A stretch of 26,464 nucleotides of DNA from a virus. Within the stretch, counting starts at the first letter, position 1; every line of letters starts with the position of its first letter. The stretch lies in the IMG/VR virus record IMGVR_UViG_3300021960_000437, positions 1 to 26,464 of that record; one strand, written 5' to 3'. The translations under genes were made by a program, and so were the position numbers. Positions 11,161 to 25,734 of this stretch are shown here, one piece after another. The notes below the pieces were generated by a model. It had not been told where the DNA came from, made no database searches, and saw only the letters and a program-made list of their open reading frames with translations.

Positions 11161-11333
11161 TAATATACCTCCGCATCTTTAATTTGGTCTACGGTATAAC
11201 CATTTTTATACATTCCAAGAATACTATATAAATATTCTTCCTGAATAAAGTTAATCAAAATGTCTATTAAATCCATCTTATCTTCTTCTTCTAAGAAAGT
11301 TCTTAGTTCAAGTAATGTCTTACCTTCAAGCAT
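11160..11333 (-). CDS. 57-residue hypothetical protein
   Basis: A short gene filling the gap between the AAA+ ATPase and exonuclease genes. ATG 11333 has a strong AGGAGGA site upstream and overlaps the end of the ATPase gene by 8 nt; its TAA shares a base with the next ATG. The protein (MLEGKTLLELRTFLEEEDKM at the start) is acidic and looks wholly helical, with a GYTVDQIKDAE end that recalls a small helix-turn-helix. No family is recognised. Tight coupling on both sides supports that it is translated. Confidence 0.7.
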   Translation of the reverse strand: MLEGKTLLELRTFLEEEDKMDLIDILINFIQEEYLYSILGMYKNGYTVDQIKDAEVY

Positions 11334-12843
11334 CCTTCTTCCTCCTAATTTCTACCTTTTGGTTAATTTTCTTTTCTTCGAAAAGGTGTTCGACTTCAGG
11401 CCATTCGCGGTAAAACGAAGGGCGTGATTTTTTCGTCACCTCCATGTAATTCTTAATCAATTGGGTTTTCTGAACCCACCCGTTGCTCTTCTTTGAACAC
11501 TTATCATAAACTGCAATAATAAGACCTTCCTTAGTCTTTTCCTTGATACGTCTTGGCGACTTCTTTAGAGTATCGCTAAACCAAGTTGTAATAGAGTCAA
11601 AACTCCGGTCAGTCAAAATTCGTGCTTGGTCTATGTGTCTAACCTCAACAGTAGTGCTACGTTCTGCAATAGCACAAAGGGTAGCGGCTACACACATATT
11701 GTTAATTGTGTTCATAAGAAAGGTGTTAAGAGCAACAAAAATATGCTCGGGGAAACCCTGCATATATTTTCGCATTCCTTTCCAAATAACCTTTAGTCGT
11801 GTTTTTGCATCGGGGGAAAATACAACCACCTTACGACGGTCGCCTACTTCGTTCAAACGATTCTCCGCCCAAATATATGTATCATATAAAAGTTCAGCGA
11901 ATTCTCTTTGAATGGCCGTAGCCCCTTCATCTTCTCCACCTACAATTTCTCCCACTTGGTCGAGATATTCTTCCTCCATTTGCTCCTTTAGAGATTCAGG
12001 AACTTCACGGACAAAAAGCCACATACGTTGGAACACACCCTTTGTTAGAATAACTCTTTCAAGACCTTCAGGGGGAAGAGTAGTTGCCCACAAACTTCTT
12101 TGGCAATCTACTACAAGGTCTTTACCCCATTCAGTCAAACGCTTCTTAATCAAGTGTGTATCAGAATCAAGACGATTCATAAACTTCTGAAACATCATCA
12201 CAGTATCTTGTTTGTGTTGGGACTCCTTGAAGATACCCGAATGTTCAAACTCGTCAAAAGCAATAATCCCCGAACCAAACAACGCGCCTTCAATATCAAT
12301 ATCAATAAACTCGGGAATTGGGTCACCGTTAATATCCAAGTTTTCATCACCACGAACCCAATCCGGATTCTTTACGTCAAACTTCTTTGTGCCGAGAAGT
12401 GCTTGGTCCGTAAATGAGTCAGGGTTTTGAAGATTGAAATTTTTCACACCTGAAAGGGGGCCACGCGGGGGGTTTCTTGTAAGCGGGTGTTCGTTGATTA
12501 GACGGAAAAGATTCTCCCATACGGGTTGCAAAAAGTCAAACATTGTAGTCTTACCACTACGAGCAGTTTGAATCCAACAGTAATGAATCCTTGGGTCGAG
12601 AGCCAACCTCCCGATAGGAACCCTAACGATATCTTTTAACATCTGCCCAAGAGTTACATAATAAGCCATAGTTGCGGGGTAATCATTATACAATGAAAAC
12701 TCCGTAACCACATCTGTCCATTCTTGAACTACGTTGGGTAATTCTGTTCTTTCCGGTCGTGAATCATCTACGAAATTATCGAAGTCTAATTTTTCTAGAG
12801 CCTCGTATAACTCCCATTCATCCACGTCTAAATCTTCTGCCAT
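11326..12843 (-). CDS. Diverged AAA+/P-loop ATPase, likely replicative helicase
   Basis: A 505-residue protein. A Walker A-like segment, QTARSGKTT (residues about 92-100), follows a hydrophobic strand; it keeps GKT but lacks the usual first glycine. Walker B is IIAFDEFE (about 193-200), followed by a sensor-like strand ending in WATTLPPEG (about 252-260) and an arginine-finger-like GVFQRMWLFVREVPES (about 269-284). DEF after Walker B and an R-hydrophobic-F/V pattern after the sensor are as in MCM helicases; DUF3987-type primase-helicases share a similar order. Residues 425-505 could be a winged helix. The gene follows the XPF-like nuclease (1-nt contact) and the primase, which fits the replicative helicase otherwise missing here. 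The ATPase call is solid; the helicase identity is inferred. Confidence 0.65.
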   Translation of the reverse strand: MAEDLDVDEWELYEALEKLDFDNFVDDSRPERTELPNVVQEWTDVVTEFSLYNDYPATMAYYVTLGQMLKDIVRVPIGRLALDPRIHYCWIQTARSGKTTMFDFLQPVWENLFRLINEHPLTRNPPRGPLSGVKNFNLQNPDSFTDQALLGTKKFDVKNPDWVRGDENLDINGDPIPEFIDIDIEGALFGSGIIAFDEFEHSGIFKESQHKQDTVMMFQKFMNRLDSDTHLIKKRLTEWGKDLVVDCQRSLWATTLPPEGLERVILTKGVFQRMWLFVREVPESLKEQMEEEYLDQVGEIVGGEDEGATAIQREFAELLYDTYIWAENRLNEVGDRRKVVVFSPDAKTRLKVIWKGMRKYMQGFPEHIFVALNTFLMNTINNMCVAATLCAIAERSTTVEVRHIDQARILTDRSFDSITTWFSDTLKKSPRRIKEKTKEGLIIAVYDKCSKKSNGWVQKTQLIKNYMEVTKKSRPSFYREWPEVEHLFEEKKINQKVEIRRKKDA

Positions 12844-13520
12844 TAGTATTTCACCTCATTTTCTGAATTTAATGCTTCAATAATATTAGAAGCAGTTGTT
12901 TTACCTATCTTTTCCACCTTACATAGTGAGTTATTATCTTGCATAGCAATTTCTAACACGCTAAGATGTTCACTAAGAAGGGCTTTAGCCTTCTTTGGTG
13001 TGATTCCTTTAATGCAACACAATAAATCAACTCTCACATCGTCTGTGCGAGTCTTTTTAGGGAGCATTTTAGTCATTTTAAAGTCTTTGTTAGCGTGATA
13101 GGCACACGCAACAATGAATTGAGCCGCAGTATCGGCATCTAATACCCAATTTGTCTTAATTTCTGTATTTAAACCAATAGAAGACAACGCCCCTAAGAAC
13201 ATTTTCTCTAATTTTTGTTTCCAGCCCGGAATATTTGTCCTTGTGTGCTTCAAATATGCTCCCACATCAGACAATCTTCCATAAACTAACAAAAAGTTAC
13301 GTTCATATGAGTCTTCCATGTTACTTAACTGATTAAACACTCTTTTATTCCTAACCGAAGCCAAAAAATCTTCAACAGACTTTGATTCAATGCAAATATT
13401 ACCAATAACATAGTCGCCAACCTCAAGATGTCTCTTTTCGGTCTTCACATTTGCTAATTTTGCATACCTTTCCACCGCATCGGAGAGAACTGAGTCTTCT
13501 CTTAGGTCAATTAGAATCAT
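12843..13520 (-). CDS. XPF/ERCC4-type structure-specific nuclease with helix-hairpin-helix end
   Basis: 225 residues from ATG 13520, which overlaps the primase stop (ATGA) behind GGAGGAAGG; the in-frame ATG at 13550 lies inside the primase gene and adds ten unlikely residues. The nuclease core shows D5, the GDYVIG strand with D36, and ESKSVEDF with E45, K47 and D51, matching the GDx(n)ERKxxxD motif except that Ser replaces Arg. Residues about 165-217 hold two helix-hairpin-helix motifs (IKGITPKKAKALL and VEKIGKTTASNII). In archaea XPF acts on flaps, forks and branched DNA, often as a dimer with PCNA. There is no helicase domain, as in the short crenarchaeal form. Likely roles are flap or recombination-intermediate cleavage during virus replication. 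Confidence 0.85.
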   Translation of the reverse strand: MILIDLREDSVLSDAVERYAKLANVKTEKRHLEVGDYVIGNICIESKSVEDFLASVRNKRVFNQLSNMEDSYERNFLLVYGRLSDVGAYLKHTRTNIPGWKQKLEKMFLGALSSIGLNTEIKTNWVLDADTAAQFIVACAYHANKDFKMTKMLPKKTRTDDVRVDLLCCIKGITPKKAKALLSEHLSVLEIAMQDNNSLCKVEKIGKTTASNIIEALNSENEVKY

Positions 13521-14560
13521 TCTCCTTCCTCCTTCGGGTATCTCCAACATTTACCTACACAGTAGCCCTTGCTAATTAAAGTATTGCATGAAGGGGCCAT
13601 ATGTCGCTTTCTAATCACATAATCTGTAAATTTGTGAGTTTTTGTAGCGTTGTAGTCAATCCAAACATCTTCGTTATTTGCAATCGTCTGAATCTCTTCG
13701 CAAATAATGTTTGTAATATCATCCAAAGCATCGCCACTAACCTCACGGGGTTTACAAGTAAGACCGTTTTCTGCGATAACTAAATCAGAAAGCAATTCAT
13801 TATACCATTGAACTAAATAATGTCTCGCTTCGTGTCTTGGGTTCTCAGTCATAATTGCAGACCTTAGACACGGGATAATAGGTAATACGCCCGGTGATTC
13901 AACTGATTCGATTTCTACTTCGGCCATACGCATTTCCTTAACTTCCGGCCATTGAACAATCTTTTCACCATAATACTCAGGTTCAATTTTTCTTGGGCGT
14001 TTAGACACCTCTAGAACGTGTTCTAAGGGCTTTGAAAGGTCTTGGGTAGTAAGGACTACCGAAAACCTTTTTGCGCCCATATGATAGGTGTTCTGAACCC
14101 TTCTAAGACGAGCCGTGTTAATCACCCTATTATCAAGTCTTGGTGATTTATAAACTACATCATGACAAATATCAAAGAAGGCTTTTACCTTTCGCAAATC
14201 AAAGGTGCGCTTCCCGTAAACAAAGATGTAAAACCCTCGACCTGAGAAAGCCATTGTGTGTTTTAAGTCTTTTTCTAATAACCAATTGTGCAACCTTTTT
14301 AAATCTGTGTATGCATCCTCAAGACTTTCTTCGCCATGCGCGTCAATGTCTAAAAATAAACGGTCAATTTTAACTGTGTGCTCTAACCCTCGATTATGTG
14401 AAAATTCATCGTAGTCATATACAGATGTGTATACATTCATTTTACCATTATAAGCGCGAATAAAATTAATGTAATCATCACGGTTTTTAACTACTACACG
14501 ACGCGGTTGAATCGCTGATTCTAAATGGGAACCCGCCCACATTTCTCGAGGAAACTTCAT
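13517..14560 (-). CDS. Archaeo-eukaryotic primase: PriS catalytic part fused to PriL-like Fe-S domain
   Basis: A 347-residue protein starting at ATG 14560 after GGTGAT. The N-terminal half is a PriS-type catalytic domain: LFLDIDAHG with D71 and D73 as metal ligands, FSGRGFYIF (about 105-113) in place of the SGxGxH nucleotide motif, and an Arg-rich TARLRRVQNTYH strand (about 149-160). The C-terminal part has IPCLRSAI with C231, a helical segment with RHEARHYLVQWYNEL, then APSC (C325), GYC (C334) and KC (C338). This spacing and the preceding conserved pattern are those of the 4Fe-4S domain of the large primase subunit PriL. One chain thus appears to combine both subunits. It makes primers for PolB. 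The GHG/SGH-type His is replaced by Tyr (GRGFY), a point to check. Confidence 0.85.
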   Translation of the reverse strand: MKFPREMWAGSHLESAIQPRRVVVKNRDDYINFIRAYNGKMNVYTSVYDYDEFSHNRGLEHTVKIDRLFLDIDAHGEESLEDAYTDLKRLHNWLLEKDLKHTMAFSGRGFYIFVYGKRTFDLRKVKAFFDICHDVVYKSPRLDNRVINTARLRRVQNTYHMGAKRFSVVLTTQDLSKPLEHVLEVSKRPRKIEPEYYGEKIVQWPEVKEMRMAEVEIESVESPGVLPIIPCLRSAIMTENPRHEARHYLVQWYNELLSDLVIAENGLTCKPREVSGDALDDITNIICEEIQTIANNEDVWIDYNATKTHKFTDYVIRKRHMAPSCNTLISKGYCVGKCWRYPKEEGE

Positions 14561-14926
14561 CTAAATCACCTGTTTTGTGTCTTTCTTAATTTGTTCTTTT
14601 AACTCTTCTTTCGAAAGAGATTTCATCCCCTTTTCAAATTGTTCTTCAAGAGGGTCTTGCACTTTTGGGGTTTCCTCTTGCACTTGCATAACAACTGCCG
14701 CCTTCTCTAAATTTTCTAAAATTAGGGGTCTAATTTCTCTTGCAAAATTAGTTTTAAACATTTGTAGAATTTCAGAATACATACCTGTTGATTCTACTAA
14801 ATAACTTAAACTATAATCGTAATTACTAAGTAATTCGTCAAGTGTTTCATCGAGTTTCATAACCTCTCCAAAAGTCCACGGACGATTGAGTAATTGCACT
14901 ACTAAATCCTTTTCAGAAGAAATCAT
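14561..14926 (-). CDS. 121-residue helical hypothetical protein
   Basis: I choose ATG 14926, with GGTGGAGAT just upstream, over the in-frame ATG at 14980, which lies inside the nuclease gene. It overlaps the end of the Cas4-like gene by 14 nt and its TAG directly abuts the primase ATG. The protein is mainly helical, with MISSEKDLVVQLL at the start and a charged Glu/Lys-rich tail (LSKEELKEQIKKDTKQVI) that may be coiled. No domain is recognised. Its place between nuclease and primase, with translational coupling to both, suggests an accessory factor in replication, but nothing in the sequence proves that. Confidence 0.6.
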   Translation of the reverse strand: MISSEKDLVVQLLNRPWTFGEVMKLDETLDELLSNYDYSLSYLVESTGMYSEILQMFKTNFAREIRPLILENLEKAAVVMQVQEETPKVQDPLEEQFEKGMKSLSKEELKEQIKKDTKQVI

Positions 14927-15815
14927 AGGTATCTCCACCACCTGCGGCTTCACAATTTTTATTAAACCCGCACTTATCACACTTCTTCCAAAAATACTTG
15001 TAGGGGAAGTCTTGTGTAAGATATGCGTCTACAAGTTTACCAAGTGAAGCCAAAACCGAAGTCATTGAACGAGGTTTTACTTCTTCAACGTAAAGATAAT
15101 TGCTAGCAGGGTAAAACCAACCCCAATGGGTAATACCAATAGCGGGGTCAAGACCTGCGGCAATTAGCGTTTCAGCCGTGGATTCTTCAAATAACAATTG
15201 ATAGAAAGCCATTTCTTTACGCATCATTGTCTTTTTGCTATCCTTCCAAGCACCTGTCTTAAGTTCGAGAGGAATGTAGCCATCATCACCAATAAAGATA
15301 CGGTCAATAATTCCCTGAAGATGAACGTTCACACCATTAACTACAAACTGTGCGTCCAATTGAACCTCATTACCCGATGGGATAAATTGGTCTATTGTGC
15401 CTTCAGTAATACATTCAAGGAATCTTTCTGCATTCCAAGCCGACATAGCGCGGTAAATATCCCTTGACTCTTCATCATCACCTTCAGGGTAATAATCCCT
15501 AAAGTGCTTTACAAGCATAGATTGGTCGTCAATAAACGGCATCGCCTTTTCGATATCAACTGCCTTCCAAAAGTCTTCTTGAGCGTTATGCACCTTTGTT
15601 CCACGAATCATCGCCTCATTAACTTCTTGTTTTACCTTACCCTTACCAAGAGGATTGTAATTCATCTCGTAAGAAGCGGGGCAGAAGTTAAATGAACCAA
15701 GAGAAGACTTTGTAATTTTAAGGACAGGTCCATCTTCTGCATCAGGGTTCCATTGATATGTAAACCCGTTATTCAAATCCTTTTCGCTCCATTCTGTTAC
15801 ATACGTCATTTTCAT
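14913..15815 (-). CDS. Cas4/RecB-like PD-(D/E)XK nuclease with Fe-S cysteines
   Basis: About 300 residues. Motifs in order: SLGSFNFCPASYEM (residues 38-51) with C45, H75 in a RGTKVHNAQE helix, GIIDRIF with D171, LELKTG with E184 and K186, and the Q-containing helix MAFYQLLFE. The C-terminus has CDKCGFNKNC (C279, C282, C288). One early and three late cysteines is the 4Fe-4S pattern of Cas4 and AddB-type nucleases, and D/ExK is the catalytic core. It is probably a DNA-end-processing nuclease for recombination or packaging. No CRISPR array or cas gene is nearby, so an adaptation role is unlikely. The start is ATG 15815 (ATGA overlap) or ATG 15809, which is better spaced from GGAGG. The last residues are TYDFF. 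Confidence 0.88.
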   Translation of the reverse strand: MKMTYVTEWSEKDLNNGFTYQWNPDAEDGPVLKITKSSLGSFNFCPASYEMNYNPLGKGKVKQEVNEAMIRGTKVHNAQEDFWKAVDIEKAMPFIDDQSMLVKHFRDYYPEGDDEESRDIYRAMSAWNAERFLECITEGTIDQFIPSGNEVQLDAQFVVNGVNVHLQGIIDRIFIGDDGYIPLELKTGAWKDSKKTMMRKEMAFYQLLFEESTAETLIAAGLDPAIGITHWGWFYPASNYLYVEEVKPRSMTSVLASLGKLVDAYLTQDFPYKYFWKKCDKCGFNKNCEAAGGGDTYDFF

Positions 15816-16698: not shown

Positions 16699-19152
16699 TT
16701 ACCACCACTTGTCTAATGACCGTTGATAAATGTCTTTCTTAATTAACCCAATAGGTAAACCCAAACTTTCAAAAATTAGTTCGGATTTATTGATAACTTC
16801 TGCTTGAGCGATGAATTCATAATCAGGAGTAAATTGTTCCGCTTCTTCAATTCTTTTGAAAGCGATGTAATTTGCTTCTTTCGAAACTCCGTCAACTAAA
16901 TAATATTTTTCATCTAAATCTGAGTTATCCATTCTCATAAAGAAATACGAATCTCCTTTCTCAATCTTACCGTATTCCTGTTGATTGTAATAAACAATCC
17001 CTGCTACTCCACCTGCGATGACTTCATAATCTTCAAGATTTTGACGTAGGCGTGAACGCTTGATTACCTGTTTCAAATCAACTTCAGCCTTTACAATCTT
17101 TGCATAGGCTTCGTTGCAATACTTAATAATCTTGTCTTCATCTTCAAAGAGCGAAACCATCTTAAGAAGTTTTTCCTGATATTCCTTAGCATAAGGTGTT
17201 TCGTTGCTCTTTTTCATTTCAAACCCCATTACGAAGAATTTGTTTTCTTCTAAGAAATCGCCATCTTTCCAAGAAAGCCAACCGCAGTAGCGATTCTTTT
17301 TCTTGGTTAGAAAGAACTTCTCAGCAAACTTTTCAAACTCGAGTTCCACGGGGTCGCGGAAGACCTCGCGGCTAATGTAATGGTTAAGTTTCTCTCTCAA
17401 TTGGTGAGCGTCTTCAACATCGCGGACCTTGATAAATACGGAGTCTGTGTGTCCATAGATAACTTCGTAGCCGAGTTCCTGTGCTTTGAAAGCAGTAAGA
17501 CGCATAGCACGTCGAGCGGAAGCAGTAATAGACTTAGCCATTTCCATATCCCCCCAACCGTAGCCGTCTTTTGCTAGAATTCCATAGAAAGCATTGACGG
17601 CTCTTTTTGTAGCCATTTGCGCTGAGTTCCACTTTCTCTTCTCTTCATCTGTTGTAGCCTCCTTCATCAATTGTTTATATTCTGCACGAAGGTCCATCAT
17701 TTCCATAACAGCCTTAGGTAGCAAACCTACACGCTCTTTCTCAAAATGAATATCAGGTTCACCTTCAAAGTGAGCGAGGGATTTAGGCGTATTCCACCAA
17801 ATAGGATAGCCTTCAGAAGATTTCGTTTCCCAAGAAATGTTATTGCTAGCCATCATCGTTGGGTAAAGAGATTTGAAGTCAAAAATTGCTACGTTTTCGT
17901 GAAGCCCAAATGTTTTGTAATATCTTGGGTCCATAACGAAAGCCGCTTCGAATTTTTCTTTATTACCCTTCACACCTGTTGGTGGAATCCAATCGGCCTT
18001 TCGCATGAAATACATACCACCCATTTGAGAGTTGTGGTATGTATTCCCGAATGGGCAGACAATTAGCCGTTGAAGGGCCATTTGATTTTCTGAAACATTC
18101 ATCACTTCATCAATCTTTACACACAATTCAACGTCTACCATAGCATAGTCAAGATAAGTCTGCGTATCTTCTAACCATCCTCGCTCATAAAACTCCTGCC
18201 CTTCAAACTTTTGGGACACAATCTTCTTTTGACCCAAAACTCGAGATGAACAATAATCAAGAGAAAGTGAGGGTAAGGTTCCCATTTGTGAGTCAATCCA
18301 AAGACGCTCGAACCTGTCCATTAAACAAACAGTCAAACGACCGTCAATTACTTGGTCGCTATTGTAATACTTATCTCCCTTAAAGTCAAAACTAAATTCT
18401 CTATTTCCTTCATCGTCTTTCTTATAAAGGTTTTTAATTTGTTTTAAGGGCGACATTTCTAATGGGTTAAGACCAACTGCAATCATTCTGCGAATGATGA
18501 AAGGAATATCGTATCCCATGATATACCAACCAAGAATCATGTCGGGGTCTTCCTTTTTAATCTTACGAAGGAAGTCCCTGAACATATGTTCTTCAGAAGT
18601 ATAAATACTAAGGGTATATCCTTCCGCTTTTAATTCATGTTCATGACCTTTAGGAAACCAAGTCATTACAGTATATTCATTTGTATAGTTATCATATAAA
18701 CTGAGAACCGTAACCTTGCCGTCATGTTCACCGCCTACTTGAGTTTCAATATCAAAATACCACTTACGCAGTTCGTATTCCGGAATCTTAGTCAAGCAAT
18801 CAAGGGAATACAAACGGGTGATATCAACGTCTGCTTGGTAGGTTTGAATGGCTTTGTTATGAAATGCTTCCTTGAGGTTATATCTAACCATTGGGTCTTC
18901 ATAATAAATCCTGTAAAGTGTATCACCTTCGAGATTTTTCCATTCACCGACTTCCACTTCAAAATTATAAGCCTTGTCGTTACCCCATTTATCCTTTGAA
19001 ACAATTCTGTTGCTCATAGTTAAATTAGATAAGTCCGTAGCCTTAACATAGAAGTAAGGTTTAAAATTTACTTCTTGGGTCATTCTCTCCCTTTTCGAGT
19101 TCCTGTATCTCACGGCTACTCTCTTCGTCGTCTTGTTGTAATCTATAATCAT
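16699..19152 (-). CDS. polB: DNA polymerase family B with C-terminal PIP box
   Basis: 817 residues from ATG 19152, placed eight bases after AGGTGG; an upstream in-frame GTG (19164) is less likely. The N-terminal domain has the FKPYFYV strand. Proofreading motifs follow: FDIE (D134, E136), YDIPFIIRR (about 214-222) and YAMVD (336-340). Polymerase motifs: A DFKSLYPT (425-432), B KRAVNAFYG (516-524), C YGHTDS (566-571). All catalytic residues are present. The protein ends QRSLDKWW (810-817), a textbook PCNA-interacting QxxLxxWW motif at the extreme C-terminus. It should be the replicative polymerase, tied to the PCNA-like clamp encoded upstream in the same block. The gene overlaps the upstream 74-residue frame by 92 nt, which is unusual. 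No intein is seen. Confidence 0.97.
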   Translation of the reverse strand: MIIDYNKTTKRVAVRYRNSKRERMTQEVNFKPYFYVKATDLSNLTMSNRIVSKDKWGNDKAYNFEVEVGEWKNLEGDTLYRIYYEDPMVRYNLKEAFHNKAIQTYQADVDITRLYSLDCLTKIPEYELRKWYFDIETQVGGEHDGKVTVLSLYDNYTNEYTVMTWFPKGHEHELKAEGYTLSIYTSEEHMFRDFLRKIKKEDPDMILGWYIMGYDIPFIIRRMIAVGLNPLEMSPLKQIKNLYKKDDEGNREFSFDFKGDKYYNSDQVIDGRLTVCLMDRFERLWIDSQMGTLPSLSLDYCSSRVLGQKKIVSQKFEGQEFYERGWLEDTQTYLDYAMVDVELCVKIDEVMNVSENQMALQRLIVCPFGNTYHNSQMGGMYFMRKADWIPPTGVKGNKEKFEAAFVMDPRYYKTFGLHENVAIFDFKSLYPTMMASNNISWETKSSEGYPIWWNTPKSLAHFEGEPDIHFEKERVGLLPKAVMEMMDLRAEYKQLMKEATTDEEKRKWNSAQMATKRAVNAFYGILAKDGYGWGDMEMAKSITASARRAMRLTAFKAQELGYEVIYGHTDSVFIKVRDVEDAHQLREKLNHYISREVFRDPVELEFEKFAEKFFLTKKKNRYCGWLSWKDGDFLEENKFFVMGFEMKKSNETPYAKEYQEKLLKMVSLFEDEDKIIKYCNEAYAKIVKAEVDLKQVIKRSRLRQNLEDYEVIAGGVAGIVYYNQQEYGKIEKGDSYFFMRMDNSDLDEKYYLVDGVSKEANYIAFKRIEEAEQFTPDYEFIAQAEVINKSELIFESLGLPIGLIKKDIYQRSLDKWW

Positions 19153-19285
19153 ATTCAATTCCACCTATTTCTATTCCATCACCACTAAGTTGCTCTTGAA
19201 AAGCATACTTTAGTGTTTCGATAAGATAGGGGGGTGAATCCCATCTTTCGTCTGTATCAATCTCAATATGAAGAATTAGTTTCAT
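19061..19285 (-). CDS. 74-residue hypothetical protein overlapping polB
   Basis: ATG 19285 overlaps the preceding stop (ATGA) and follows GAGGAATTGG. The first 48 residues (MKLILHIEIDTDERW ... GIEIGGIEYDYRL) look like a small alpha-beta domain, with a strand, a TLKYAFQEQL helix and a strand. The rest (QQDDEESSREIQELEKGEND) is acidic and low-complexity, and lies entirely over the start of polB in another frame. The polB N-terminus in that stretch carries conserved family features, so polB probably constrains the sequence and the acidic tail is tolerated. No family recognised. Confidence 0.55.
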   Translation of the reverse strand: MKLILHIEIDTDERWDSPPYLIETLKYAFQEQLSGDGIEIGGIEYDYRLQQDDEESSREIQELEKGENDPRSKF

Positions 19286-21978: not shown

Positions 21979-22044
21979 TGAGGTTGGGGCTTCGCACCCC
22001 ATTGGCCGTCATTTTGCTCACGACTAAGCGGAGTTTAGCCTCAG
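21979..22044 (-). promoter_or_regulatory. Structured intergenic element between the RPA-like gene and the next gene
   Basis: In minus-strand RNA the outer arms CUGAGG (22044-22039) and CCUCAG (21984-21979) pair. Inside, GGGGU-GCGAA-GCCCC (22000-21986) forms a GC-rich hairpin that needs a U-G pair present only on this strand, and a weaker CUAA/UUAG stem is possible near 22037-22023. Together they form a possible three-way fold in one of the few gaps of the block. It could be a processing site, a weak terminator without a U-run, or a regulator of the GGTGAT site just after it. Confidence 0.4.
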
Positions 22045-23282
22045 AAGAAATCTACTTCGTCAGCGTTTGCCTCCGTAATGCCTTCAGGTGCGCCAGTTGC
22101 ATTTCGCGCATAAACACCATAAAGGTTGATTGTTACGGGGTTAAACTCGCCATCAATAGGCATCCCGTCTTCATCGCGCTTTTGTGTTTGGTTTGTGCGA
22201 CCTACAACGATAACATCTGAACCTACACCAAAGTCAATTTCGACTCCTTCAGGAATCCAAATCGGTGTGGATTCAGGGATATCCTCGTCGGAGAAACCGT
22301 AGTTTGCGTCAATGGGTTCAACCCACATAACGCGGTTTCCGGTCTTCTCATTCGGAGTTAGATTCATTGAAGTTACGATACCATCTGTAACCACAAGACG
22401 TGTTCCCTGCTTCTGTTGAATCTGTTCGTGGAACGTATCAAGTTCCATCAAATCAGCGAGATATTCAACCATGTGTTCTGCAATTGCTTCCTCATAATCA
22501 ACAGAAGAAACATCGAACCAACGCTCATCATCCTCATCGAGTGTATCAATGTATTGGATAGAAGCACGGGTCTTACCCTTGATACCATAAATCGCATTTC
22601 GTTCCTCGTTAAACATACCGTAAAGACTGAGAGGACGGAAGGTTTGAACACGGAAGTTCTTTGCATCATCGCCCTTCAATTGCACAGTCCAAAAGCCGGT
22701 ATCTTCTCCAACCTTACCACCAATGAAATGAGCGCGAACAACCCATTCTTCAGAAGGTAGTGGCTTACCGTAATTCTTGTTTGCATCACCGGATGCCCAA
22801 GCCTTTACTGCATCAAGAGGAACAATCCAACGGTCTTCTCCTACTTCCATAGCAGAACCGGGGATTTGTCCTACAACCTTTGTTTCCCATTCATCATTGT
22901 GATAACGCGTTGCTTCGTAATCACCATCAGAATTGACTTCAACGAGGGCAACCAAACCATCTTCAAGAGTTTGATTTTCGTCCGCATTGAAACGAGATAG
23001 AACGCTCTTACGCTTCCACTCCATCATATCACGAACACCTTCAACGGCTACAAAATAACCAACACCTGTGCTTCCATATCCACCACCCGTGGTTCTTGCA
23101 CCTGCAATACGTCCACGGGCAAAGTTACGGGTAAGAACAAGTGCGGTCAATTGTGCACGTTCCTCCGTTACGTCAAGGGAATTGCTCAAAGCAATTTCCT
23201 GAAACTTTTCGGTCATTTCATCTTCAGTCATTTCTAGCCTCTTGGCTAATCCATTCAATTCTTTTCTTACTCGTTCTAGCAT
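22041..23282 (-). CDS. OB-fold ssDNA-binding protein candidate (RPA-like)
   Basis: 413 residues from ATG 23282, the first start after the clamp-loader stop; earlier in-frame starts lie inside that gene and add an unlikely cysteine-rich piece. The N-terminal 60 residues are helical (LERVRKELNGLAKRLEMTEDEM). The central and C-terminal parts read as beta-barrel segments, for example PSEEWVVRAHFIGGKVGEDTGFWTVQL and LVVTDGIVTSMNLTP ... SDVIVVGRT, resembling archaeal RPA OB folds. The end is an acidic tail, ADEVDFF, which recalls the acidic aromatic tails by which single-strand-binding proteins recruit partners. Placement between clamp loader and recombinase supports an RPA role. No zinc motif is seen. 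OB folds are hard to prove by eye. Confidence 0.55.
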   Translation of the reverse strand: MLERVRKELNGLAKRLEMTEDEMTEKFQEIALSNSLDVTEERAQLTALVLTRNFARGRIAGARTTGGGYGSTGVGYFVAVEGVRDMMEWKRKSVLSRFNADENQTLEDGLVALVEVNSDGDYEATRYHNDEWETKVVGQIPGSAMEVGEDRWIVPLDAVKAWASGDANKNYGKPLPSEEWVVRAHFIGGKVGEDTGFWTVQLKGDDAKNFRVQTFRPLSLYGMFNEERNAIYGIKGKTRASIQYIDTLDEDDERWFDVSSVDYEEAIAEHMVEYLADLMELDTFHEQIQQKQGTRLVVTDGIVTSMNLTPNEKTGNRVMWVEPIDANYGFSDEDIPESTPIWIPEGVEIDFGVGSDVIVVGRTNQTQKRDEDGMPIDGEFNPVTINLYGVYARNATGAPEGITEANADEVDFF

Positions 23283-23302
23283 TTTCAATCCCTGCCTTTC
23301 TT

Positions 23303-24214
23303 TCACTTTACCAAATTCGCTACAAACCAATTCACAAGAACTTTGGGGGTCACAGAACGCGACCTCCATTCCATTTCTCCTACGCTCGCTACGACCTTAA
23401 AGGATTGGGTGTTATCCAAATCCATAGACGTTACGGCTTGTAGGAGTTTAGCACAAATATCTGTTACAGAATGTCCACTAAGGACTAGTCGCTCCAAGAA
23501 GGCCACGGCCTCCTTTGGCTTTGATTCAATGTTCTCAATACAACGAACATAGGGAACAAGACCTTCTGAGTTTAGATTCTTAGGAGATTTACCTGAGAAA
23601 ATACAAGCCTGAAGTTCGTTAATTGCACGGCGGAAATCACCACCGGAAATGTCCACTACTTCACGGACCAATGTATCATCAAAGTCTGCTCCAATAGATT
23701 CAACAATACGACTCAATCGTTCAACCTGCACTTCTGCAGGAATTGGTTCAAGCAAATAATTTGCACACCGAGAACGAAGTGCCGAGTCAATTGCGTAAGG
23801 GTCATTTGCAGTAATCACAAACCGGACGTTTTGATAACGCTCCATAGTGCGCTTTAGTGCGCGTTGTGAATCACGGGTCATACCCTCGATTTCATCAAGA
23901 AGCACAATCTTAAACTTAGAATCAACGTAAGACTTATTGCTACAAAAATTGCTAATAGTCTGACGAACTGTTTCCAAGCCTCGGTCTTGTGATGCATTGA
24001 TTTCCAAGAAGTCGTCGCGCTTTGCATCACCAAGGAAGTGATTTCCAAGAACGTGAGCAACGGTTGTTTTACCAATTCCGGGCCGTCCGTATAGCAATAC
24101 GTTAGGCATATCACCCCTCTTAATCCACGATTCAGCATCGGCTACAAGTTTAGGTTGCCCGATAACTTCTTCAATTACATTCGGTCTATATTGTTCTGTC
24201 CAATTCATGTTCAT
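23303..24214 (-). CDS. Replication factor C small subunit (clamp loader)
   Basis: A 303-residue AAA+ protein. The RFC boxes appear in order: WTEQYRP (5-11), VIGQ, Walker A GRPGIGKTT (43-51), ASQDRGLETVR (73-83), Walker B VLLDEIEGM (104-112), ITANDP sensor 1 (134-139) and SRC (148-150), then GGDFRRAINELQ sensor 2. All key residues are in place. It would load the clamp onto primed DNA. Archaeal loaders usually also need a large subunit, not seen in this window. The start is ATG 24214 (ATGA overlap with groEL) or ATG 24208, six bases after GGTGA. It is co-translated with the chaperonin, an uncommon pairing. Confidence 0.95.
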   Translation of the reverse strand: MNMNWTEQYRPNVIEEVIGQPKLVADAESWIKRGDMPNVLLYGRPGIGKTTVAHVLGNHFLGDAKRDDFLEINASQDRGLETVRQTISNFCSNKSYVDSKFKIVLLDEIEGMTRDSQRALKRTMERYQNVRFVITANDPYAIDSALRSRCANYLLEPIPAEVQVERLSRIVESIGADFDDTLVREVVDISGGDFRRAINELQACIFSGKSPKNLNSEGLVPYVRCIENIESKPKEAVAFLERLVLSGHSVTDICAKLLQAVTSMDLDNTQSFKVVASVGEMEWRSRSVTPKVLVNWFVANLVK

Positions 24215-25734
24215 TCACCAATCACACATTCTGCCGTTAATACGTAACCTGCTACACTTACGGCGGAGCGTAGCGAGGAAATAACCACCTTAGCGGGGTC
24301 AATAATATGGGATGCTTTATCCCAAGAAGTAATCTCTCCTTCTGAGAAGACGGGCACGTATTTTCCCGCCTTCTTTACCAAAGCCATATTGTCTTCAAAA
24401 CTAGCGTCATTGTAATTAGACATAATCTTACAAAGGGGAGCCATCAATGCAAATCTAATCCAAGAGGGCAAATCCTTAGAAGCGGCCATGTTAGTAAATA
24501 ATGCACCACAACCGGGGACTACACCTTCTTCAAGAGCGGCCCGTGTTGCATTTAGCGCATCATCTAAGCGGTCTAATTTATTCTTAATCTCTTGTTCTGA
24601 AATACCAAAGACTTCAATAATAGCGGCCTTAGCATTTAGTCGAGCCAATCTCGAGTTATGTTTTTTCTTGTAAAACTCGTTTTCAGCAAGGGTCAAATCG
24701 TCTGCAATTTCACTAATACGAATCTTGATTCGGTCGCCTTCGTAATCAATAAAGGTCGTCTTATCATTTGTAATAATAACTTTTCCAACAGTAGCCATTT
24801 CTTCTGCTGTAATATCAGAAAGACGCATACCAATTTGTTCATTGAAAAAGACTGACCCTGTAATAGCGGATAAGTCGCCAAGTCGCTCATCCTGCCAAAA
24901 AGAAATATCTTCTGCCTGCACTACACACATTTGGAAGTTTCCTGATGATACGTTAATAGCAACAGACTGAAGGGCCACACCCGAGATTTCCCGACAAACT
25001 ACAACCAATGGTTTCTTTTCTGCCTGAGAGATTTTGATAGCCGGAACCAACTCTTCAAATGATTGAATGCTAGCGTTGCTAACCAAAACAAGCGCGTTTT
25101 CCATTACAGTCTTTGGGCCTAAAATCTTCTTGAAAACGGGGTTAATATATCCTTTTTCACATTCATATCCATCTACAATAGTTATTGAATCTTCACCTTT
25201 AGCAGAAGGTTCAACAGTAATGATACCTTCCTTACCTACTTCCCTGAAAGCATTAGTAATAAGTTCAGCCAATTTTGCATCTCCGTTAGCGGAGATGGTA
25301 GCCACCATTAAGATTTCTTCATCCTTAGTAATAGGGGCAGTTAAACCTTTAATAGACTTGATAATCTCTTCTGCCGCTTCTTCTAACTCACGTCGAATTT
25401 CGGCACGGGGTTTCTTGCTATTGGTTACTTCATTGAACCCGTAGCGAATAAAAGCATCCGCAAGAACGGTGGCGGTTGTAGTCCCATCACCTGCTTGTTC
25501 TTGTGCTCTTTGTGCTACTTCAATGAGAAGTTTAGCACCCGCATATTCATAGGGGTCTTCAAGGACAATATGCTTTGCAATTGTTACACCATCATTCACA
25601 ACCAATGGTGCAATATCACCCTGTCGGTTGATGATTACGGATTTAGTAGCAGGGCCAAGTGTGCAACCTACTGCATTAGCAACTTGTTCAATACCACTTC
25701 GTAGGGCATCACGCGCTTCCATTCCAAACTTCAT
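24211..25734 (-). CDS. groEL: Group I chaperonin (GroEL/Hsp60)
   Basis: 507 residues, against about 548 in Escherichia coli. The family signatures are clear: KFGMEARDAL, TLGPATKSV, VVNDGV with D48, AGDGTTTATVLADA with D83, EVGKEGIITVE, and DDALNATRAALEEGVVPGCG with D392. D48, D83 and D392 correspond to the three ATPase aspartates of GroEL. The usual GGG after VVAG is GCG here. The protein stops at TAECVIGE, so the flexible Gly-Met tail is absent. It is of the bacterial type, not the thermosome type of archaea. A GroES-like gene precedes it with an ATGA overlap, and RFC follows. It would fold virus proteins in ATP-driven cycles, perhaps capsid or replication proteins. Several bacterial viruses carry their own chaperonins; the client here is unknown. 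Confidence 0.95.
   Translation of the reverse strand: MKFGMEARDALRSGIEQVANAVGCTLGPATKSVIINRQGDIAPLVVNDGVTIAKHIVLEDPYEYAGAKLLIEVAQRAQEQAGDGTTTATVLADAFIRYGFNEVTNSKKPRAEIRRELEEAAEEIIKSIKGLTAPITKDEEILMVATISANGDAKLAELITNAFREVGKEGIITVEPSAKGEDSITIVDGYECEKGYINPVFKKILGPKTVMENALVLVSNASIQSFEELVPAIKISQAEKKPLVVVCREISGVALQSVAINVSSGNFQMCVVQAEDISFWQDERLGDLSAITGSVFFNEQIGMRLSDITAEEMATVGKVIITNDKTTFIDYEGDRIKIRISEIADDLTLAENEFYKKKHNSRLARLNAKAAIIEVFGISEQEIKNKLDRLDDALNATRAALEEGVVPGCGALFTNMAASKDLPSWIRFALMAPLCKIMSNYNDASFEDNMALVKKAGKYVPVFSEGEITSWDKASHIIDPAKVVISSLRSAVSVAGYVLTAECVIGE

What the first reader, a model, noticed from the sequence alone, without database searches (positions are those of the whole stretch)
13517..14560. 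One-chain primase joining PriS catalytic core and PriL Fe-S domain
The catalytic DxD pair and the four cysteines C231, C325, C334 and C338, with PriL-like surroundings, lie in one 347-residue chain. Cellular archaea use two proteins. The nucleotide-binding motif reads SGRGFY where His is usual, so activity or nucleotide choice could differ.
Basis: partly seen in the sequence, partly recalled or inferred. Interest (0 to 1): 0.6.

Follow-up and report, generated by a model that had tools for sequence, protein, structure and literature searches.

The report
One-chain archaeal-virus DNA primase
The gene encodes a compact single-protein DNA primase of a marine archaeal tailed virus, joining the catalytic part and a probable iron-sulfur part of the usual two-subunit enzyme; the same one-chain design is already annotated in viruses of salt-loving archaea, so it is a sound find but not a new kind of thing.

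Summary
Minus-strand ORF 13517-14560 (347 aa) carries an archaeo-eukaryotic primase (AEP) core and a C-terminal four-cysteine domain. In 80 distinct homologues D71, D73 and D143 are invariant, and so are C231/C325/C334/C338 in every complete sequence; the other three cysteines are not. A predicted structure matches AEP/PriS folds. The C-terminal half is collinear with a halovirus primase whose end matches PriL models; direct PriL matches are weak, but they fall on the right half and the right cysteines. A 4Fe-4S cluster is inferred, not shown.

It is not new as a design. Haloarchaeal tailed viruses (HVTV-2, HCTV-16, HRTV-27, HJTV-1) carry a homologue already annotated as small subunit plus large subunit in one chain. 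Plasmid pTN2 has another, and some cellular archaea (DPANN cluster 2, Undinarchaeota) also fuse priS and priL, so 'cellular archaea use two proteins' is too broad.

The SGRGFY change is real but a lineage trait. Residue 111 is His in 63 of 80 homologues and Tyr in 17, in one part of the tree. Arg154 is always kept, and His160 in 16 of 17. Motif II His is known to vary in mobile-element AEPs, including to Tyr. Whether nucleotide choice differs is untested.

The parts
13517..14560 (-). Single-chain primase gene, 347 aa (PriS-like core + PriL-CTD-like domain)
   Evidence: ORF; 80 distinct homologues; dN/dS about 0.07 against L001
13913..14560 (-). N-terminal AEP / PriS-like catalytic region, residues 1-216
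   Evidence: AlphaFold2 model pLDDT 85; PDB fold matches LigD-Pol, CAPP, Prim-PolC, PriS, E about 1e-4; weak PriS profile hits in relatives
14342..14350 (-). Motif I, DID (D71-I72-D73)
   Evidence: D71 and D73 80/80
14228..14245 (-). Motif II, SGRGFY (residues 106-111); Tyr where most relatives have His
   Evidence: His 63, Tyr 17 of 80; one to two changes on the tree
14132..14134 (-). Motif III aspartate D143
   Evidence: 80/80
14081..14101 (-). Motif IV-like stretch R154-VQNTY-H160
   Evidence: R154 80/80; position 160 His/Asn, Arg in the two halovirus rows
13520..13912 (-). C-terminal PriL Fe-S-domain-like region, residues 217-347, with C231, C325, C334, C338
   Evidence: Cys invariant; collinear with halovirus primase; PriL profile hits in relatives
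12843..13550 (-). ERCC4-type nuclease with helix-hairpin-helix, next gene in the conserved replication block
   Evidence: Pfam ERCC4 1.4e-15; downstream of the primase in 94/94 loci
11326..12843 (-). P-loop ATPase, probable DUF3987-type replicative helicase partner
   Evidence: Relative L063 hits DUF3987 1.8e-5; present in 94/94 loci
16699..19164 (-). Family B DNA polymerase, the presumed user of the primers
   Evidence: Pfam DNA_pol_B 4.8e-45

Best explanation
It is the replicative primase of a marine archaeal tailed virus of the magrovirus type. The N-terminal AEP core (D71, D73, D143 binding metal ions; motifs II and IV holding the incoming nucleotide) makes the first dinucleotide and a short primer. 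The C-terminal helical domain is a reduced PriL C-terminal domain that holds a cofactor on four cysteines, most likely a 4Fe-4S cluster, and helps bind the initiating nucleotide and template. The primer then passes to the virus's own PolB with its PCNA and RFC. Shown here: fold and motifs of the core, conservation of the four Cys, homology to halovirus one-chain primases, conserved replication operon. Inferred: the Fe-S cluster, primase activity, the initiation role, and any effect of Tyr111.
For: Core: fold search hits only AEP-class structures at E<1e-3 (LigD-Pol, CAPP, Prim-PolC, Sso PriS 5of3_A, P. horikoshii PriS 1v33). Whole chain: hhalign to HVTV/HCTV primases 98.6%, E 5.7e-16, pairing C231, C325 and C334; profile match to HVTV-2 1.9e-10. 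PriL half: HCTV-16 primase residues 293-370 hit PriL PRK02249 at 8e-4, relative L049 residues 272-331 at 0.0022; among 18,950 NCBIfam models PriL was matched by the most members, with PriS also near the top. No separate PriL match in 14 magrovirus-like records of 84-98 kb; exactly one copy of this gene in each. Operon with PolB, ERCC4 nuclease and DUF3987-like ATPase in 94/94 loci.
Against: The window protein itself hits no Pfam family and only a LigD-pol model, weakly (0.022), in NCBIfam. The C-terminal fold search has no significant match; its best hit is PriX, a PriL-CTD relative without Fe-S, at E 1.3. No direct profile-profile test against cellular PriL could be run. No biochemical data. 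The cysteines could bind zinc.
Confidence: 0.87

Rival explanations
1. Prim-Pol core with a PriCT/PriX-like helical domain whose four cysteines bind zinc and are structural, not a PriL-type Fe-S domain.
For: Best C-terminal fold hits are PriX (4wyh, 5of3_C), though not significant; PriCT-type domains fused to AEPs are common in mobile elements (PMC5862659). The last Cys spacing (CxxxC) is shorter than in the haloviruses.
Against: PriL models, not PriCT, were matched by relatives; four invariant Cys include the early one beside an N-P-x-H-x-x-R stretch, also present in the halovirus primases.
Confidence: 0.15
2. A repair or gap-filling primase-polymerase (LigD-Pol/PrimPol-like) rather than the replicative primase.
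For: LigD-Pol structures are the top fold hits; the weak NCBIfam hit of the window protein is to LigD-pol; neighbours include an ERCC4 nuclease.
Against: It is the only primase gene found in near-full-length relatives, by the two searches run, and sits in the PolB-helicase block in 94/94 loci; the halovirus homologue is annotated as the DNA primase next to PCNA.
Confidence: 0.08
3. Tyr111 marks a catalytically dead or regulatory primase in this lineage.
For: Motif II His is needed in many AEPs (PMC5862659).
Against: D71, D73, D143 and R154 are kept in all Tyr members; strong purifying selection; other AEP families work with Gln there, and Tyr occurs naturally.
Confidence: 0.05

Closest known systems
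Haloarchaeal tailed-virus DNA primase (HVTV-2 gp100, HCTV-16 gp99; Druskaviridae)
   Same: One chain; AEP core then PriL-like end; four Cys; collinear over the full length, hhalign 98.6%; annotated 'small subunit (N-terminal region) and large subunit (C-terminal region)'; also near PolB, PCNA, RFC, Cas4 and HNH genes
   Different: About 19-20% identical; His in motif II and Arg at the position of H160 (HRR); last cysteine spacing x8 rather than x3
Hafunaviridae DNA primase (HRTV-27 gp62, HJTV-1 gp70)
   Same: Same one-chain annotation
   Different: More distant; as read here from the translation, HRTV-27 keeps only the first of the C-terminal cysteines
PolpTN2 of plasmid pTN2 (Thermococcus nautili)
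   Same: PriS-like plus PriL-like fusion, biochemically active (PMC3973330)
   Different: Over 900 aa, similarity to both PriL domains, Gln in motif II; different AEP supergroup (PrimPol-PV1)
Fused PriS-PriL of DPANN cluster 2 and Undinarchaeota
   Same: One-gene cellular primase (PMC7414124)
Archaeal PriSL heterodimer
   Same: Catalytic motifs, C-terminal four-Cys domain
   Different: Two genes; full-length PriS and PriL with a PriL N-terminal domain that has no room in this 347-aa chain (sizes from own knowledge)

Membership tests
AEP superfamily (PriS-type core) | Motif I DxD and motif III Asp | tested here: met
   D71, D73, D143 80/80
AEP superfamily (PriS-type core) | AEP fold | tested here: met
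   All PDB matches with E<1e-3 are AEP/Prim-Pol
AEP superfamily (PriS-type core) | Motif II His | tested here: not met
   Tyr in the window; His in 63/80 relatives. Not strictly required: it varies in several AEP families
PriL C-terminal Fe-S domain | Four conserved cysteine ligands | tested here: met
   Invariant in all complete homologues, three other Cys not
PriL C-terminal Fe-S domain | Sequence-profile match to PriL | tested here: inconclusive
   Weak hits in relatives, right region; none for the window protein itself
PriL C-terminal Fe-S domain | PriL-CTD fold | tested here: inconclusive
   PriX is best hit but E 1.3
PriL C-terminal Fe-S domain | Bound 4Fe-4S cluster | not testable with these tools
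   Needs purified protein
One-chain halovirus primase family | Full-length collinear homology | tested here: met
   hhalign E 5.7e-16 over 287 columns
PrimPol-PV1 supergroup | Conserved motif IV Arg with relaxed motif II His | tested here: inconclusive
   R154 and variable 111 fit, but archaeal PriS also has an Arg there; no tree against PV1 families was made

The most novel reading that the evidence does not exclude
One magrovirus lineage has replaced the motif II His of a PriS/PriL-type primase with Tyr while keeping motif IV Arg154 and (in 16 of 17) His160, giving a Y-R-H nucleotide pocket beside HRH, HRN and HRR relatives; this shifts nucleotide choice or initiation, and the natural series would let that be measured.
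Probability: 0.25. Interest if true: 0.45.

Novelty: new member of a known kind. Interest (0 to 1): 0.25.

Why it matters
It extends the one-chain primase of haloarchaeal viruses to a large set of marine magrovirus-like genomes (at least 327 IMG/VR stretches) with the four cysteines kept, and gives a small natural series of nucleotide-pocket variants (HRN, HRH, YRH, HRR) in one enzyme family. A compact primase of under 350 residues with a PriL-CTD-like end would be a handy model for how the two PriSL parts cooperate.

Tried and rejected
Direct PDB sequence searches with the protein, the family profile and the C-terminal profile gave nothing usable. Pfam on the window protein: nothing. PF01896 on the window record and PF04104 on the record and its relatives: nothing. 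PolpTN2 C-terminal part against PDB did not reach PriL. PADLOC: no defence hit. The Apasviridae exemplar OR863078 is not held. The magrovirus discovery paper (Philosof et al. 2017) was not available, so whether it already described this fusion could not be checked.

Full report
What is there. The window is a 26,464-base virus record. The finding lies on the minus strand: a 347-aa ORF at 13517-14560. It sits in a leftward replication block: chaperonin of the TCP-1/cpn60 family, RFC small subunit, Sak4-like ATPase and clamp, PolB, HNH, PD-(D/E)XK nuclease, the primase, an ERCC4 nuclease, a P-loop ATPase and a 3'-5' exonuclease. The gene content fits the magroviruses (order Magrovirales) of marine Poseidoniales archaea, which are reported to encode PolB, archaeo-eukaryotic primase, clamp and clamp loader (PMC10768690, PMC12999244). 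The assignment to magroviruses is by gene content, not by a tree of marker genes.

The observation. IMG/VR holds at least 327 stretches encoding relatives; the best 80 loci were kept, and with the earlier scan and two halovirus proteins gave 80 distinct sequences. D71, D73 and D143 are invariant. C231, C325, C334 and C338 are invariant in every complete magrovirus-like row and in two halovirus primases, while C132, C269 and C287 vary. The window and its nearest relative L001 differ at dN 0.089 and dS 1.31, so the protein is under purifying selection.

The catalytic half. An AlphaFold2 model from 48 window and locus sequences has mean pLDDT 85 and pTM 0.66. All 19 PDB matches with E below 1e-3 are AEP-class: LigD polymerase domain, CAPP, Prim-PolC, and PriS of Sulfolobus and Pyrococcus. 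Some relatives hit PriS models weakly (L097, TIGR00335, 0.0016, residues 76-127).

The C-terminal half. It is collinear with the end of the halovirus one-chain primases; hhalign of the whole family gives 98.6% and E 5.7e-16, pairing C231, C325 and C334, and the C-terminal part alone gives 94.7% and E 6.2e-8. The halovirus HCTV-16 protein hits PriL PRK02249 at 8e-4 over residues 293-370, and relative L049 hits PriL at 0.0022 over residues 272-331. In a scan of 48 members, PriL models had the most members matching. Each of these is weak alone. The model of this half alone is well formed (pTM 0.83), but the fold search gives no significant match; PriX, a PriL-CTD relative, is first at E 1.3. I take PriL-CTD homology as likely and the Fe-S cluster as inferred.

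Motif II. Position 111 is Tyr in 17 of 80 and His in 63. A maximum-likelihood tree puts 16 of the 17 Tyr rows in one group (support 90/78) with L049 just outside; the label needs two changes, and starred branches force only one. The haloviruses, used as outgroup, have His, so His is the likely ancestral state. Motif IV residues equivalent to the pair discussed for human PriS K318/H324 and archaeal 'HRH' (PMC5862659) appear to be R154 and H160, by the R-x5-H spacing. The triads are YRH (16), YRN (1, L052), HRH (13, the neighbouring clade), HRN (48) and HRR (2, haloviruses). So the Tyr lineage almost always keeps a His at 160. Loss of the motif II His is known: Gln in PolpTN2-like and RepB', His/Gln/Tyr in PrimHYQ. 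This is a residue-level variant with precedent; an effect on nucleotide choice is untested.

Is it the only primase? In 14 relatives of 84-98 kb, each holds exactly one copy and none has a PriL match. That PriL search used the Pfam model, which also fails on this protein, so a very divergent free PriL is not excluded. Gene order primase - ERCC4 - P-loop ATPase is kept in 94 of 94 loci with enough flank. One homologue of the ATPase matches DUF3987, a domain predicted to be a helicase and fused to AEP primases in bacterial mobile elements. Here the two are separate genes.

What is already known. HVTV-2 gp100, HCTV-16 gp99, HRTV-27 gp62 and HJTV-1 gp70 are deposited as 'DNA primase; eukaryotic/archaeal primase small subunit (N-terminal region) and large subunit (C-terminal region)'. 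PolpTN2 is a characterised PriS-PriL fusion (PMC3973330). Cellular fusions exist in DPANN cluster 2 and Undinarchaeota (PMC7414124). So the design is known, and the protein is a new member of it.

Verdict. Observation confirmed; interpretation right in essence, overstated as to rarity. Interest 0.25.

Noticed in passing
window 11326-12843 (-): 505-aa P-loop ATPase with no Pfam hit of its own; a homologue (L063) hits DUF3987, a candidate helicase usually fused to AEP primases in bacterial mobile elements. Present downstream of the primase in 94/94 loci.
   Followed up: partly
window 24211-25734 (-): TCP-1/cpn60-family chaperonin encoded by the virus next to RFC.
   Followed up: no
window 14913-15815 (-): PD-(D/E)XK nuclease with a C-terminal cysteine cluster (CDKCGFNKNC), Cas4-like; upstream of the primase in most relatives.
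   Followed up: partly
window 22041-23369 (-): 442-aa protein with no recognisable family, between RFC and the Sak4-like gene.
   Followed up: no
L105, L106: Close relatives of the primase lie in MAGs labelled Altibacter and Maricaulis (bacteria); probably archaeal-virus contigs binned wrongly.
   Followed up: no
L101:1429-2670: HRTV-27 primase keeps the first C-terminal Cys but lacks the later ones, although annotated as including the large-subunit region; possibly a natural loss of the cluster in one halovirus.
   Followed up: no
L107:8001-8282: Weak relative (32%, residues 14-114) in a Clostridia MAG contig.
   Followed up: no
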